64,000 nt of DNA, from NCBI GenBank assembly GCA_903929755.1, contig CAIYVZ010000082.1, forward strand, positions 1-64,000, in the 5' to 3' direction. Origin of the DNA: an uncultured Acidobacteriia bacterium. GTDB lineage: Bacteria > Acidobacteriota > Terriglobia > Bryobacterales > Bryobacteraceae. Every line of letters starts with the position of its first letter. The first letter of the stretch is position 1. This document shows, piece by piece, positions 3,567 to 56,719 of the stretch. The notes beneath the pieces were generated by a model that was given only the letters and a program-made list of their open reading frames with translations, made no database searches and was not told where the DNA came from. The translations under genes and the position numbers were made by a program.

Positions 3567-4583
3567 ATGAACCTTCGAACCGCTCTCATCTCTGCTCTGA
3601 TCCCGGCCCTCTGCCTGCCCCTCCTGCTCTCCGCTGCCGAGCCCGACATGTCGATCAGCAACGGCCCCCTCCAGGCAAAAATCTACCTGCCTGACGCTAA
3701 GGACGGCTTCTACAAGGGCACGCGCTTCGATTGGTCCGGTGTCATCCACAGCCTTACCTTCAAGGGCCACGATTACTACGGCCCCTGGTTCCAGGAGCGC
3801 CGCGATTCAGTGAAGGACTTCATTTACGAGGGCGGCAAAGTCGTCACCGGCCCCGCAAGTTCCATCACCGGCCCCGCAGAGGAATACGCGCCTCTCGGCT
3901 TCGATGAAGCCGCCGCCGGTGGCGTCTTCGTCAAGCTGGGCATCGGAGCGCTCCGAAAACCCGACTCGGTCGCCTACGACCACTACAAGACCTACCAGTT
4001 CGTGGATGAGGGCAAGTGGACAGTCACTCATGGCCCCGACTGGGTCACCTTCCGGCACGATCTCACAGCCCCCAACGGCCTCGCCTATGTCTACACCAAG
4101 ACCGTTCGCCTCATCCCCGGCCAGCCGAAGATGATCCTCGAACATTCCCTGCGTAACACCGGCAAAGTGGCCATCAAGACCTCCGGCTACAACCACAACT
4201 TCGTCACCATTGATGGCAAGCCGGCCGGCCCCGGCTACACCATCGCCGCAGCCTTCAACATTAAGACCCCCAAGCCCCTCGAAGGCATCCTCGCCACCAT
4301 CAGCGGCAATCAGATCGCCTACCGGAAGAAACTCCAGGGCGAGGACCGCGTTACCACTCCTTTTCAGGGTTATGGAACCACCGCCGCCGACTATGATTTC
4401 CGCATCGAGAGCAAAGACGCCGGTGCCGGCATCCACTTTACCGGCGACAAGCCCCTCTCCCGCGCCATGATGTGGTCCATCCGCACCGTCGTCTCCGTAG
4501 AGCCTTTTATCGACCTCAACGTCGAACCCGGCAAAGAGATGACCTGGAACTATAACTATGAGTTCTACACGCTCAATAAATGA
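3567..4583 (+). CDS. Secreted protein, possibly galactose-mutarotase-like fold
   Basis: A protein of about 338 residues with a clear signal peptide (MNLRTALISALIPALCLPLL, cleaved near SAAEP). The body contains YYGPWFQERRDSVKDF, EYAPLGFDEA, a HDLTAPNGLAYVYTKTVRLI segment and MILEHSLRNTG. The alternation of long beta-strands with phrases such as LEHSLRNTG resembles proteins with the aldose-1-epimerase/galactose-mutarotase beta-sandwich, but no catalytic His pair was identified. The function is therefore open. The Met at 3567 best begins the signal peptide; 3555 and 3558 are alternatives. It lies 42 bases before the DUF1549 gene and may be co-transcribed with it. Confidence 0.65.
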   Translation: MNLRTALISALIPALCLPLLLSAAEPDMSISNGPLQAKIYLPDAKDGFYKGTRFDWSGVIHSLTFKGHDYYGPWFQERRDSVKDFIYEGGKVVTGPASSITGPAEEYAPLGFDEAAAGGVFVKLGIGALRKPDSVAYDHYKTYQFVDEGKWTVTHGPDWVTFRHDLTAPNGLAYVYTKTVRLIPGQPKMILEHSLRNTGKVAIKTSGYNHNFVTIDGKPAGPGYTIAAAFNIKTPKPLEGILATISGNQIAYRKKLQGEDRVTTPFQGYGTTAADYDFRIESKDAGAGIHFTGDKPLSRAMMWSIRTVVSVEPFIDLNVEPGKEMTWNYNYEFYTLNK

Positions 4584-4625
4584 CGCGTCGCACGCACCCT
4601 GAAACTCACATATACTGACAAAATC

Positions 4626-6791
4626 GTGAATCGCCCCGTAGCGCTCGCGCTCTGCCTCTCTGCCACGTTGCTTGCCCAGTCTGATGACCGGGCGAGGACC
4701 CTCCTTTCCGCAAACTGCGGCGGTTGCCATGGCACCTCCAAAATGTCCGGCCTCAGCCTGGAATCCCGCGAAGCCCTCCTTGCCGGAGGCTCCCGAGGCC
4801 CCGCCATTATCCCCGGCAAAGCCGCCGAAAGTCTGCTCTACAAGGCCGCTGCCCGTGAAGGCGAACTCAAAATGCCGCCCGGCAACAAGGCGCTCCCTGC
4901 CGCTGACCTCGCCATCATCCGAGACTGGATCAACTCGGGCGCGCCCTTCTCCTCACCGCAACAAACCGCCGCTGAACCCTCTTGGTGGTCCTTCCGTAAA
5001 CCCGTCAAACCCGCCGCAAAATCCCTCGACGAGATTCTCGGTAACTCCAAACCATCCGCCGACCGCCGCACCCTCATCCGCCGCGCCACCTACGATCTCA
5101 CCGGCCTCCCACCCACTCCCGAAGAGATCGAAGCCTTCCTCAACGACAAAGCCCCCAACGCCTGGCCCAAAGTCGTCGATCGTCTCCTCGCCTCGCCCCG
5201 CTACGGCGAACGCTGGGGCCGACTCTGGCTCGATGTCGCCCGCTATGCCGACACCGGAGGCTACGAAACCGACGTCCTCTTCCCCAACGCCTGGCGCTAT
5301 CGCGACTACGTCATCCGCGCCTTCAACGCCGACAAACCCTACGACACCTTCATCAAGGAACAAGTCGCCGCCGACGAAATCTGGCCCGATAACCTCGACC
5401 TCAACGGCACCTACGAACTCCCCGACGCCAAGCGCCAAAGCCTCGAACGCCGCCTCGGCACCGGTCTCTACACGCTCGGTGCCATGCCCGTCGAATACAC
5501 TTTCTTCGGCGACCAGTTCCGCGCCGAATGGCAGGCCGAAAACGCCGTCGTCACCGCCAACGCTTTCCTCGGCCTCACCTTCCAGTGCGCCCGCTGCCAC
5601 GACCATAAATTTGACCCCATCGCCCAAAAAGATTTCTACCGCCTCAGCGCCTTCTTCGCCGGCAGTGAGGACCGCGAAATCCCCATCGTCAGCCAGATGC
5701 GGATCTTCGAATACACCCGCTACCAGACCAAACAGGTCGCCGTCGACGAACTTCGCAAGAAGTACGCCGCCCTAAAACCGGGCGATAAAGACGGTCGCGA
5801 AACTCTCCTCCGCCAGATCGGCGAAGCTTACGTCAAAACGCCGCTTATGTACGACAAGGCCAATGTCCTCGTCCACACCGCGCCAGTTCCCGACACCTAC
5901 ATCCTGCCCCGCGGCGATTCCATGAAGAAGGGCGACAAAGTCACGCCTGGCATTCCCGCCGTCTTCGGCAAAGCCCCCGAACTGAACGAAGCCTCTGACG
6001 GCAATTTCATCCCCCGCCGCCGCAAAGCTCTCGCCGAATGGCTCGCCTCGCCAGACAACCCTCTCACCGCCCGTGTCATGGTCAACCGCGTTTGGCAGGG
6101 CCACTTCGGAGAAGGCATTGTAGGCTCCCCCAACGACTTCGGCCACCAGGGTGACAAGCCCACTAATCAGGACCTCCTCGACTTTCTCGCCACCGACTTC
6201 ACCGCCAAAGGCTGGAGCCTGAAAACCCTCCACCGCACCATCATGACCTCCGCCGCCTACACGGGCGAAGTGAAGCCCCGCCGCCTCGACGCCGAGCAGA
6301 TCCGCGACAGCATCCTCGCCGTCACTGGCGCTCTCAATACCAAAATGTTCGGCCCGCCCGTCGTCAGCCCCCTCGCCAAAGACGAGCGCGAAGCCATGCG
6401 CGACCTCAGCATGTGGCCCATCTCCAGCGACCCCGCCGACCATGACCGCCGCTCCGTCTACCTCTTCATCAAACGAGCCTTCCGCCTGCCCCTCCTCGAC
6501 ACCTTCGACGCCCCCGCCACCGACGAAAGTTGTCCCCGTCGTGAGACCTCAACCGTCGCCCCCCAGGCCCTCGCGCTCATGAACAGCGAATGGACCTCCG
6601 ACCAGGCCGCCCGCTTCGCCAAACGCCTCTCCACTTCAAAGGACCTGATCGGCGACGCCTGGACCCTCGCTCTCGGTCGCCAACCCGACCCCGAGGAACG
6701 CACCAAAGCCCAGCAATATCTCACCCGCAACAGCCCCGAACGTCTCTGCCTTCTCATCCTCAACATGAGCGAGTTCCTCTATGTCAATTAA
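4626..6791 (+). CDS. DUF1549/DUF1553 protein with planctomycete-type cytochrome c domain
   Basis: A 721-residue exported protein. A short signal peptide (MNRPVALALCLSATLLAQ) is followed by a PSCyt1-type cytochrome c region with the heme motif C31-G-G-C34-H35. DUF1549 follows, with TPEEIEAFL, a GERWGRLWLDVARYAD block and a second CARCHDHKFDPI motif typical of this family. DUF1553 makes up the C-terminal half, with NPLTARVMVNRVWQGHFG and ALALMNSEW. These genes are abundant in Planctomycetes and Solibacter and are almost always paired with a DUF1501 gene, as here. The cargo and electron partner are unknown. GTG at 4626 is the start that gives the signal peptide. The stop overlaps the DUF1501 start by 11 bases, suggesting translational coupling. 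Confidence 0.93.
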   Translation: MNRPVALALCLSATLLAQSDDRARTLLSANCGGCHGTSKMSGLSLESREALLAGGSRGPAIIPGKAAESLLYKAAAREGELKMPPGNKALPAADLAIIRDWINSGAPFSSPQQTAAEPSWWSFRKPVKPAAKSLDEILGNSKPSADRRTLIRRATYDLTGLPPTPEEIEAFLNDKAPNAWPKVVDRLLASPRYGERWGRLWLDVARYADTGGYETDVLFPNAWRYRDYVIRAFNADKPYDTFIKEQVAADEIWPDNLDLNGTYELPDAKRQSLERRLGTGLYTLGAMPVEYTFFGDQFRAEWQAENAVVTANAFLGLTFQCARCHDHKFDPIAQKDFYRLSAFFAGSEDREIPIVSQMRIFEYTRYQTKQVAVDELRKKYAALKPGDKDGRETLLRQIGEAYVKTPLMYDKANVLVHTAPVPDTYILPRGDSMKKGDKVTPGIPAVFGKAPELNEASDGNFIPRRRKALAEWLASPDNPLTARVMVNRVWQGHFGEGIVGSPNDFGHQGDKPTNQDLLDFLATDFTAKGWSLKTLHRTIMTSAAYTGEVKPRRLDAEQIRDSILAVTGALNTKMFGPPVVSPLAKDEREAMRDLSMWPISSDPADHDRRSVYLFIKRAFRLPLLDTFDAPATDESCPRRETSTVAPQALALMNSEWTSDQAARFAKRLSTSKDLIGDAWTLALGRQPDPEERTKAQQYLTRNSPERLCLLILNMSEFLYVN

Positions 6792-51597: not shown

Positions 51598-52671
51598 ATG
51601 ATCATCACTCCAAGGTTCACCCCCGGGTTCGACGCGAATTTCGGCGTCAACGCAGCCGCCGCCAGGGCAGCATGGATAACGGCCGCGAAAGTCTTCACCG
51701 ACGCATTCTCAGACCCCATTCACATCAATATCACGGTCGATGCGCTAACCAATCCAAAGGTTTTCGGACGGAGCTTCCCGAACTTCCTGTCAATTACTTA
51801 TGCCGACTTGCATAACAGGGTCAGCGCATACGCATCCACACAAAACGATGCCGTAGCCATCAGTCCCGGGGGCTCCATGAGCGCCGCCGATCCCACCAAT
51901 GGCCAGGGGACGTGGCAGTTGACTCGACCTCAGGCTAAAGCGCTCGGCTTTATTCCGGATGATCTGTCCGATGATGGCGGTACCACTTTCGGCGTCAATA
52001 ACCCCTTCACCTTCTCCGGCGCGATCGCCCCGAAAACCTTCGATTTTCAGGGTATCGCCGCACACGAGATCGCCGAAGTGTTGGGCCGCCTCGGCCTTTC
52101 CGGTGGAAACAACAGGTTCAGCTTGATCGATAATTTTTCCTACACAGGCCCCGGAATGAAAGCGCTTAGCGGCGGCGCGGGGAATTTTTTCTCCATAGAC
52201 AACGGCGTTACCCTGCTCAAAGCGTTTAACAATTCCTCCGCAAACCATTTGGATACCCGCGACTGGGCGGACGGCTCCAATGACTCGTTCAATCAGTTTT
52301 CCAACCCAGGCGTCGTGAATGCCGTCACCGCCGTGGACTTGCAGCTTATGGATGTAATCGGGTACGGCCGTGTCAATCCCATCGGGAGCCTGATCGAAAC
52401 AGTAGGCCACGTCGCTTTCCTGCGGGCTCACGAACTCGGCGGCGGCTTCGGCCTCGCTCCCAATTTTCTTGACTGCGAGGTGATCGTGCAACTCGCGGAG
52501 GAACCTCTCCGCTCCTTCGGCTTTAAACTGCGGGCCGACGCCAACCAACCCGCGCGCACGGAGATGTTTGACCTGCTCCGGTCCTCCTTTGTCGCGCATC
52601 GCCCCGTCCGTCTCGACTACCAGACCACCGGCCCCCGCGCCGGTGAAATCATTCGCATCGCAAATCCATAG
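51598..52671 (+). CDS. HExxE metalloprotease with C-terminal domain shared with next gene
   Basis: A 357-residue protein resembling the NF038122 family of secreted-type metalloproteases. The active site is H156-E157-I-A-E160 in FQGIAAHEIAEVLGRLGLSG. The usual third-position His of HExxH is Glu, as in relatives with HExxEVxGR. No signal peptide is visible (MIITPRFTPGFDANFGVNAA). Residues about 262-357 form a separate domain homologous to the whole of the protein encoded at 52692 (shared FLRAH, FGFKLR and PARTEMFDLLRSSFV). The two genes are 20 bases apart. A run of at least nine A residues and promoter-like sequence precede the gene near 51507. Confidence 0.8.
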   Translation: MIITPRFTPGFDANFGVNAAAARAAWITAAKVFTDAFSDPIHINITVDALTNPKVFGRSFPNFLSITYADLHNRVSAYASTQNDAVAISPGGSMSAADPTNGQGTWQLTRPQAKALGFIPDDLSDDGGTTFGVNNPFTFSGAIAPKTFDFQGIAAHEIAEVLGRLGLSGGNNRFSLIDNFSYTGPGMKALSGGAGNFFSIDNGVTLLKAFNNSSANHLDTRDWADGSNDSFNQFSNPGVVNAVTAVDLQLMDVIGYGRVNPIGSLIETVGHVAFLRAHELGGGFGLAPNFLDCEVIVQLAEEPLRSFGFKLRADANQPARTEMFDLLRSSFVAHRPVRLDYQTTGPRAGEIIRIANP

Positions 52672-52691
52672 GAACTTAAAGGAGAATCACC

Positions 52692-53069
52692 ATGTCCAAC
52701 TTACTTGAAAAAACCGGAAAGATCGTTTTTCTCAGAGCTCATGACCCAGGCACAAAGTTCGGTCCTCCCAACGATCAACTGGACGTTGAAGCCGTCTTCA
52801 GCCTCAACGCCATCAGCGATGGGGCCTACGGCTTTCAACTCCGAAATGACGGCAACCTTCCAGCGCGTCAGGCAATGTTCAGCCTGCTGCGCGATGCCTT
52901 CGTGAACAATCTGGCTGTTACCGCCGACTACCTGATTGATCCGGGCAAGAAGAACGGCGTAGCGATTCGCATCGCGCTTACCCGCAACCAACCAGCCCTG
53001 GCAACTCCCGGAACATCACGTGCGGAATCATCCGGCGGCCAGGCGCTCCCGAACTCCAGCGCCACCTGA
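52692..53069 (+). CDS. Small partner protein sharing the metalloprotease C-terminal domain
   Basis: A 125-residue protein. Residues 5-96 align with residues 264-357 of the upstream metalloprotease: IVFLRAHDPGTKFGPPNDQL against VAFLRAHELGGGFGLAPNFL, and YGFQLRNDGNLPARQAMFSL against FGFKLRADANQPARTEMFDL. The last 30 residues are Ser/Ala-rich and disordered. No enzyme motif, signal peptide or membrane segment is present. AAGGAG seven bases before the ATG gives strong translation. It could be a substrate, inhibitor or binding partner of the protease; I do not recognise the family. Confidence 0.8.
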   Translation: MSNLLEKTGKIVFLRAHDPGTKFGPPNDQLDVEAVFSLNAISDGAYGFQLRNDGNLPARQAMFSLLRDAFVNNLAVTADYLIDPGKKNGVAIRIALTRNQPALATPGTSRAESSGGQALPNSSAT

Positions 53070-56164: not shown

Positions 56165-56719
56165 TTATTTCGTGGCGCGAGCGACGAGGCCGTTTTCAAT
56201 CATACCGACGTCTCCCTGCGTGAGTTTGAGCCCTCGCTGCATGTCGGCGAAGTCACTGGCCGTCCAGCGTGCCTTCATGACCCCGCTTTCGGAATGCTGA
56301 TCCACACCCTGCAGGATGTGGACGATCTCGTGCGCCAAAACGTGTCCCGCGATGTAGGGTACCTGGCCGGACCTGGCCGTTGTCATCATTCGGTCGTAGA
56401 AAAGCACCACGTGCGTACCTTCGAAAGGCAGCGCATAGGCCAGCGCACCCGGATGTACGTTGGCCGGGGTCTCCTGGGAAAATGTGAAAACGATTCCGCC
56501 ACCGTCTTTGGTACAGCGGCTCAAGCTGTCCCGCCACTCCAGCCGAACGTTAGCTTGCGCGAGTATCTGCGTCGCCGTCGCCTCTGCCCGGCCTAACGCG
56601 GCCGCATTCGCGCCGGGATTCAAACAAACGGTCACAACACTTTTCGCTGCCTGGCCCTTTTCCCCGGCCCACCCGACCGTCCCCATCGCCAGCACCGCCA
56701 CCACACCCGCCAGTTTCAT
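56165..56719 (-). CDS. Small secreted metzincin-like metallopeptidase
   Basis: A 184-residue exported protein (signal peptide MKLAGVVAVLAMGTVGWAGE). It contains HEIVHILQGVDQHSESGVMK, that is HExxHxxxGxxxH with a following Gly-x-Met, the arrangement of metzincin peptidases including the Met-turn. It is short, but compact single-domain peptidases of this size exist. The gene lies between the ECF sigma factor and the kinase and is transcribed like the kinase, six bases before the longest possible start of the kinase gene. The role is unknown. Confidence 0.82.
   Translation of the reverse strand: MKLAGVVAVLAMGTVGWAGEKGQAAKSVVTVCLNPGANAAALGRAEATATQILAQANVRLEWRDSLSRCTKDGGGIVFTFSQETPANVHPGALAYALPFEGTHVVLFYDRMMTTARSGQVPYIAGHVLAHEIVHILQGVDQHSESGVMKARWTASDFADMQRGLKLTQGDVGMIENGLVARATK

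What the first reader, a model, noticed from the sequence alone, without database searches (positions are those of the whole stretch)
51598..53069. Metalloprotease and a small protein sharing the same extra domain
The last 95 residues of the HExxE protease are homologous to nearly the whole of the next gene product, 20 bases downstream with a perfect AAGGAG. Shared FLRAH, LR-D-N-PAR and MF-LLR---V blocks show common descent. A domain present both on an enzyme and as a free partner suggests docking, inhibition or substrate recognition. Neither protein has a signal peptide. This is the best candidate here for an undescribed two-gene system.
Basis: partly seen in the sequence, partly recalled or inferred. 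Interest (0 to 1): 0.7.

Follow-up and report, generated by a model that had tools for sequence, protein, structure and literature searches.

The report
Protease and free partner share OB domain
A soil bacterium carries a compact two-gene cassette in which a putative metal-dependent protease ends in a small unnamed barrel domain and the next gene makes that domain on its own; the same "fused copy plus free copy" pairing turns up with a different carrier protein, which suggests a swappable assembly module.

Summary
The last ~90 residues of a 357-aa NF038122-type metalloprotease (HEIAE motif) and most of the next gene product are 43% identical (E 1.3e-14). The genes are 20 bp apart, with AAGGAG before the second.

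The domain matches no Pfam, NCBIfam, PHROG, PADLOC or PDB sequence family above threshold. AlphaFold2 predicts an OB-type barrel (pLDDT 88.5 for the Bacillus copy). Its nearest solved folds are AB5-toxin B subunits, with crystal-forming CipA also listed: similar fold, no demonstrable homology.

The domain is very rare and not protease-specific. In five distinct loci a "fused-type" copy at a carrier's C-terminus is followed within 10-21 bp by a "free-type" copy. The carrier is the protease in three and a BNR/sortilin-like propeller in two. Fused copies form one side of the tree (88/98), so the two lineages probably split before carriers were exchanged. Partners agree in having or lacking a signal peptide (5 of 5).

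Best reading: the free subunit co-assembles with the fused copy and arrays or targets the carrier. No contact between them has been shown. "Undescribed two-gene system" holds; "protease system" is too narrow.

The parts
51598..52377 (+). NF038122 (metallo_LGF) catalytic domain, residues 1-260; starts where relatives' mature domain starts, no signal peptide
   Evidence: NCBIfam 148.5 bits against a cut-off of 80, residues 21-256; alignment with relatives
52063..52077 (+). HEIAE putative zinc-site motif
   Evidence: among 22 other members read HExxE in 17, HExxH in 4, QQxxE in 1
52399..52668 (+). fused-type (F) OB-like domain, protease residues 268-357, in the place where relatives carry PEP-CTERM
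52679..52684 (+). AAGGAG ribosome-binding site of the free gene
52692..53069 (+). free-type (S) OB-like domain protein, 125 aa; domain 52713-52979, C-terminal tail low-confidence in the model

Best explanation
The window holds a small, apparently transferable two-gene cassette. Gene 1 is a carrier, here a putative NF038122 metalloprotease, ending in a fused-type OB domain. Gene 2 is the free-type OB subunit. The free subunits form, or complete, an oligomer (ring, tetramer or lattice, as OB-fold B subunits and CipA do), and the fused-type copy docks the carrier into it. The carrier is thereby multimerised, positioned or brought to a ligand of the domain. Shown here: the pair, its conservation, two carrier types, matched signal-peptide status, and an OB fold at model level. 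Inferred: physical contact between fused and free copies, oligomer size, any ligand, and protease activity.
For: All 5 distinct fused-type copies found are followed directly by a free-type copy, gaps 20, 10, 10, 21 and 21 bp (G526 not counted apart, being 99.9% identical in DNA to the L006 genome here). Carriers are the protease in 3 and BNR/Sortilin-Vps10 propellers in 2; the two propellers are only about 32% identical over their best 193 alignment columns. The tree puts the 5 fused copies on one side of a branch (88/98), and all 5 share a one-residue deletion found in none of the 8 others, so the pairing looks older than the present carriers; holding the two L066 copies together, as a local duplication would, is rejected (p 0.016). 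Partners agree in signal-peptide status 5 of 5: both present in L066, both absent in the other four (by hydrophobicity and position). DNA similarity of L005 to L006 is confined to the pair (L005 3896-5433 of 10369), and window 46000-60000 matches the seven loci compared only within the pair. AF2 models give b-b-b-alpha-b-b. AB5-toxin chains make up 33 of the 50 PDB rows shown for the window model and 40 of 50 for the Bacillus model (many are entries of the same few proteins); CipA is listed in both, which PMC9530169 reports as an OB fold forming tetramers in a crystal lattice (passages read).
Against: No complex was modelled or measured. Foldseek E-values are weak (best 4.3e-3 and 3.6e-2; none at or below 0.001), and OB folds are common. 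The fused clade is not fully supported, and local duplication is not rejected for L009 (p 0.18) or the protease loci (p 0.21). The three protease pairs are one related group, and 5 loci is a small number. In G129 (L069) a copy at the C-terminus of a PKD-like protein has no second copy in that genome, so fusion does not always come with a free partner, although that copy is of free type by sequence. Free-type copies lack a fused-type partner in 3 of 8 cases, so the free type must do something on its own.
Confidence: 0.45

Rival explanations
1. The free protein is an inhibitor, immunity protein or chaperone of the carrier: it mimics the fused domain and occupies its docking or active-site face until release.
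For: Adjacent gene, matched signal-peptide status, a diverged copy of the carrier's own domain; the carrier is a putative protease that would need control if it stays in the cell.
Against: The same pairing occurs on propeller carriers with no enzyme recognised by Pfam. Free-type copies exist with no fused partner in the Bacillus and Calditrichia genomes.
Confidence: 0.2
2. Both copies independently bind the same ligand (glycan, polymer or cell-surface component), the fused copy as a targeting domain and the free copy as a stand-alone lectin-like protein, without touching each other.
For: The nearest folds are glycan-binding B subunits. Conserved polar residues in loops of the model: H12, E28, R46, D48, N50. 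Signal peptides on L008 and on both L066 partners.
Against: Conservation is not enriched in loops: 9 of 23 conserved columns are in loops, against 32 of 93 residues of the model (counted from its output); I lowered this reading slightly for that. It does not by itself explain why every fused-type copy has an adjacent free-type copy. Four of five pairs have no signal peptide.
Confidence: 0.18
3. An AB-type delivery system of environmental bacteria: an enzyme delivered by an OB-fold B-like ring, parallel to the metzincin AB5 toxins EcxAB/CfxAB, but with one B-like copy fused to the enzyme.
For: Metalloprotease plus B-subunit-like fold in one gene pair; EcxAB is a known metalloprotease AB5 family (PMC9120245, PMC8779504, passages). 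A free-type copy lies next to a kumamolisin-like protease in G129.
Against: No sequence similarity to B subunits of solved structure. No signal peptide in 4 of 5 pairs. A propeller carrier in 2 of 5. No host or target known.
Confidence: 0.1
4. A recent tandem duplication without a joint function.
For: Local duplication is not rejected statistically for two of the three locus groups tested.
Against: Copies are only 43% identical within the window, while over the domain each is 76-89% identical to its own counterpart in L005/L006 with dN well below dS.
Confidence: 0.03

Closest known systems
NF038122 family metalloprotease (NCBIfam metallo_LGF)
   Same: Catalytic domain matches well above cut-off (148.5 against 80 bits); HExxE is common among relatives read.
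   Different: All 22 other members read carry a PEP motif followed by a hydrophobic stretch and basic residues (by eye; one of them confirmed by Pfam); the window member has neither signal peptide nor PEP-CTERM, and ends in the OB-like domain.
AB5 toxin B subunits, and the metzincin AB5 toxins EcxAB/CfxAB
   Same: Predicted b-b-b-alpha-b-b OB fold; TM up to 0.70 (by query) to LT-IIb B; a metalloprotease gene beside a B-like gene.
   Different: No sequence similarity found, weak Foldseek E-values, one B-like copy fused to the enzyme, no signal peptides in the window, pentamer not shown.
CipA crystalline inclusion protein (PDB 7xhs)
   Same: OB fold in the Foldseek lists (E 0.18 and 0.39); self-assembly inside cells would suit proteins without signal peptides.
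   Different: No sequence match. Crystal formation is unknown for this domain; CipA has no fused-carrier partner that I know of (recalled).
PEP-CTERM/exosortase sorting
   Same: Relatives of the protease appear to use it by sequence, including the genome's own second member (L020, by eye) and the closest domain-free relative found, in G024 (60% identical; Pfam PEP-CTERM 20.9 bits, cut-off 20.7).
   Different: The window protease lacks both the signal peptide and the tail; the OB domain stands in the tail's place.

Membership tests
NF038122 metalloprotease | Match above the curated score | tested here: met
   148.5 bits against a cut-off of 80
NF038122 metalloprotease | HExxH zinc motif followed by LGF (as the family name suggests) | tested here: not met
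   HEIAEVLGR; but HExxE in 17, HExxH in 4 and QQxxE in 1 of 22 other members read, so the motif does not exclude membership
NF038122 metalloprotease | Proteolytic activity | not testable with these tools
   sequence only
PEP-CTERM/exosortase substrate | Signal peptide and C-terminal PEP motif, hydrophobic stretch and basic end | tested here: not met
   absent in the window, L005 and L006 proteases; PEP tail present in 22 of 22 others read
AB5 toxin B subunit | OB fold with a helix between strands 3 and 4 | tested here: met
   model level only, pLDDT 88.5, TM by query up to 0.70
AB5 toxin B subunit | Detectable homology to a known B subunit | tested here: not met
   profile search of PDB sequences: best E 1.5, a glucarate dehydratase-related protein; no Pfam family named for B subunits among the hits of 11 members
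AB5 toxin B subunit | Pentamer formation and receptor glycan binding | not testable with these tools
   no complex prediction or assay available
AB5 toxin | Separate A chain held by the B ring; both chains Sec-exported (definition partly recalled) | tested here: not met
   the carrier contains its own B-like copy; no signal peptide in window, L005, L006 or L009 proteins, present in both L066 proteins
CipA-type crystalline inclusion protein | OB fold that self-assembles into a lattice | tested here: inconclusive
   fold listed; assembly not testable

The most novel reading that the evidence does not exclude
A modular soil-bacterial AB-like machine: a free OB subunit forms a ring-like platform in which one position is taken by a dedicated fused-type OB copy carrying an exchangeable cargo (metalloprotease or propeller). 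This would be a B-subunit-type delivery or display platform, unrelated in sequence to known toxins and passed between Acidobacteria as a 1.5-kb cassette.
Probability: 0.15. Interest if true: 0.8.

Novelty: new variant of a known kind. Interest (0 to 1): 0.5.

Why it matters
If the fused and free copies co-assemble, this is an unnamed, swappable two-part scaffold that places different carriers on an OB-fold oligomer. It would show how B-subunit-like platforms might arise outside pathogens and give a compact tag-and-scaffold pair. It also shows a protease lineage whose relatives carry secretion and PEP-CTERM sorting signals, but which carries a small binding or assembly domain in their place.

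Tried and rejected
Searches that led nowhere: plasmids and phages (tblastn with the L007 domain only, no match); viral contigs (21 pattern hits, none confirmed); PDB sequences; PHROGs (best E 0.21, in 2 of 10 members), NCBIfam (0.15, in 1 of 10) and PADLOC (window proteins only, none). Weak Pfam hits to Tad5 (E 0.0076, 1 of 11 members) and HIRAN (0.17, 1 of 11) were set aside; where one search gave the Tad5 score for L003 it was 13.1 bits against a cut-off of 27. The G176 hit (E 0.003, 38% over 67 residues) was dropped: the profile search of the 237 family genomes reports only the window genome and G129. BFVD Foldseek gave uncharacterised phage proteins, LEF-3 and other OB folds, none at E 0.001. 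Papers: NF038122 in no paper of the library; PEP-CTERM with metalloprotease and Acidobacteria, none; AB5 with B subunit, OB-fold and environmental bacteria, none; one search listed 10 of 41 AB5 papers and, 75 further listings, of which I read only passages of PMC9120245, PMC8779504 and PMC9530169.

Considered and rejected: a domain restricted to proteases (propeller carriers); a genus-wide feature (2 of 237 family genomes). An in-frame read-through of the L009 pair as a one-chain test of contact was considered and not done, since the tool returns no coordinates. The second structure job went to the L007 domain instead.

Counting against the model (9 of 23 columns, 32 of 93 residues) does not bear that out, so the claim is withdrawn and the ligand rival lowered from 0.20 to 0.18.

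My first scan of NF038122 loci missed members on the minus strand of their loci; one search added them. Both picked ORFs by a loose pattern around the active-site motif. All 20 non-window loci of L016-L032 and L042-L045 were covered, plus L061 and L062. Weaker loci L033-L041 and L064, and matches without a locus, were not read; L060, L063 and L065 repeat genes already read.

Full report
What is there. The two ORFs, the 20-bp gap, the AAGGAG and the shared domain are all as described. The only match to the small protein elsewhere in the 6.86-Mb genome is the tail of the protease (43% over residues 3-96, E 1.3e-14).

The protease. Residues 21-256 match NCBIfam NF038122 (148.5 bits against a cut-off of 80); Pfam has nothing. 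NF038122 is common in relatives: 26 of 61 genomes at E 1e-5, 16 of 61 over the cut-off. I read 22 other members: 13, 8, 1. All 22 have, near the C-terminus, a PEP motif followed by a hydrophobic stretch and basic residues (by eye). HExxE occurs in 17, HExxH in 4 and QQxxE in 1, so the HExxE motif is ordinary. The closest domain-free relative found (250 class genomes searched) is in G024 (60% identity). It has a signal peptide that ends just before 'GMIITP' and a Pfam PEP-CTERM match (20.9 bits, cut-off 20.7). The window protein begins at 'MIITP', so it corresponds to this family's mature domain without signal peptide or sorting tail, with the OB-like domain where the tail was. The starts are supported by ribosome-binding sites in L005 and L006 (GGAGG before TTG).

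The domain and its reach. A profile of 11 copies hit 3 of 396 genomes of the phylum, 2 of 237 of the family, 1 of 299 of the Bacillus relative's class, 1 of 40 of the Calditrichia relative's phylum and 2 of 193 of the L009 genome's class; a 10-row profile (A3) hit 1 of 151 of the Bacillus relative's family. These counts include the centre genomes, which were known to have it. A single-sequence search of 200 genomes of the order gave 3 hits, one of them dropped. The pattern-based scan of genome contigs gave 5 loci. Known holders are therefore the window genome, L005, L006 (the same genome as G431 by coordinates and size), G526 (99.9% identical DNA to G431 at this place), L007, L008, L009, G1113 and G129.

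Architecture. Protease with fused copy followed by a free copy: window, L005, L006. BNR/Sortilin-Vps10-like propeller with fused copy followed by a free copy: L009 (900 aa, Pfam E 4e-12) and L066 from G1113 (786 aa from its Met, E 6.8e-10). Single copies: L007 (Bacillus), L008 (Calditrichia, with signal peptide) and L069 in G129, a PKD-like protein (Pfam PKD E 0.19, below cut-off) whose copy is of free type. In G129 the next gene, 75 bp on, is a pro-kumamolisin-like protease (Pro-kuma_activ E 1.4e-14). Gaps in the five pairs are 20, 10, 10, 21 and 21 bp. Partners agree in signal-peptide status in 5 of 5 by a hydrophobicity measure. In that measure S_L006 and S_L009 reach 1.99 and 2.10, nearer the signal peptides, but these stretches lie inside the domain, not at the N-terminus; the verdict for them rests on position.

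History. In a 13-row tree the five fused copies lie on one side of a branch (88/98; not starred). All five have a one-residue deletion absent from the other eight. Holding the two L066 copies together is rejected (p 0.016), but not the two L009 copies (p 0.18) or the six protease-locus copies (p 0.21). So an old fused/free split, older than the present carriers, is favoured but not proved. Over the domain, window copies are 76-77% (fused) and 87-89% (free) identical to their counterparts in L005 and L006, with dN well below dS. The similarity of L005 to L006 is confined to 3896-5433 of 10369 bases, and window 46000-60000 matches the seven loci compared only within the pair. This looks like a cassette that moves on its own; I did not search for mobility genes.

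Fold. AF2 of the window free protein with 10 rows: pLDDT 74.8, pTM 0.63. AF2 of the Bacillus domain: pLDDT 88.5, pTM 0.79, strands 2-11, 29-33, 36-43, helix 51-67, strands 70-77, 84-92. Foldseek against PDB gives no match at E 0.001 or below for either. Of the 50 rows shown, AB5-toxin chains (pertussis, LT-II, cholera-type, Shiga, Plt, Art) are 33 for the window model (of 362 matches at E 10) and 40 for the Bacillus model (of 237); the rest are other OB folds such as LEF-3 (rank 9), RMI, RPA, SilF and CipA. For the better model TM to LT-IIb B is 0.70 by query and to Shiga B up to 0.73 by target. This supports an OB fold of the B-subunit type, not homology. Sequence searches find nothing above threshold. 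PMC9530169 (passages) reports the same situation for CipA: OB fold, LT-IIb B as a close structural match at under 10% sequence identity, tetramers in a lattice.

How it may work. Of 23 columns conserved in at least 12 of 13 rows, 9 fall in loops of the model, no more than expected from its 32 loop residues of 93; among these, H12, E28, R46, D48 and N50 are polar and could be a ligand or contact site, but this is no more than a lead. The constant adjacency, matched signal-peptide status and separate lineages are best explained by two subunits that work together, the free one building or completing an oligomer and the fused one docking the carrier (0.45). Inhibition, independent ligand binding and an AB-like delivery system are rivals. 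The metalloprotease-plus-B-like-gene layout has a known parallel in EcxAB/CfxAB (PMC9120245 and PMC8779504, passages), but sequence similarity, export signals and chain layout differ, so it is not filed there.

Novelty. Neither the domain nor the pair is named in Pfam, NCBIfam, PHROGs or PADLOC as searched here, and the paper searches done (and the 10 of 41 papers listed) show no description; that is a limited search of open-access papers. I rate it a new variant of a known kind: a known fold and a known protease family in an undescribed modular pairing.

Noticed in passing
L005 5001-5423, L006 5001-5417, L009 3057-3506: Free copies at these three loci end in lysine/arginine-rich tails; the window free copy and those of L007, L008 and L066 do not.
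   Followed up: partly
L069 4661-5341 and 5417-6973: PKD-like protein with a free-type copy directly upstream of a pro-kumamolisin-like protease that shows no obvious signal peptide by eye.
   Followed up: partly
L007 3118-5291 and 7519-7857: In Bacillus sp. V3B the domain has a tyrosine-rich leader resembling those of small cysteine-containing neighbours on the other strand (three ORFs), and a bulb-lectin-like ORF lies about 2 kb away (read by eye).
   Followed up: no
L008 766-4422: A CHAT-domain/TPR protein (Pfam CHAT E 8e-23) lies two genes upstream of the single copy with a signal peptide; it may be chance.
   Followed up: partly
L062 1711-2616: An exosortase-like membrane protein (by eye) lies beside a PEP-CTERM NF038122 protease in G1210.
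   Followed up: no
window 56165-56719 (-): Small protein with an HExxH-like stretch (AHEIVHIL) and only a weak Pfam M13 hit (E 0.096), between a kinase with beta-propeller repeats and an ECF sigma factor.
   Followed up: no
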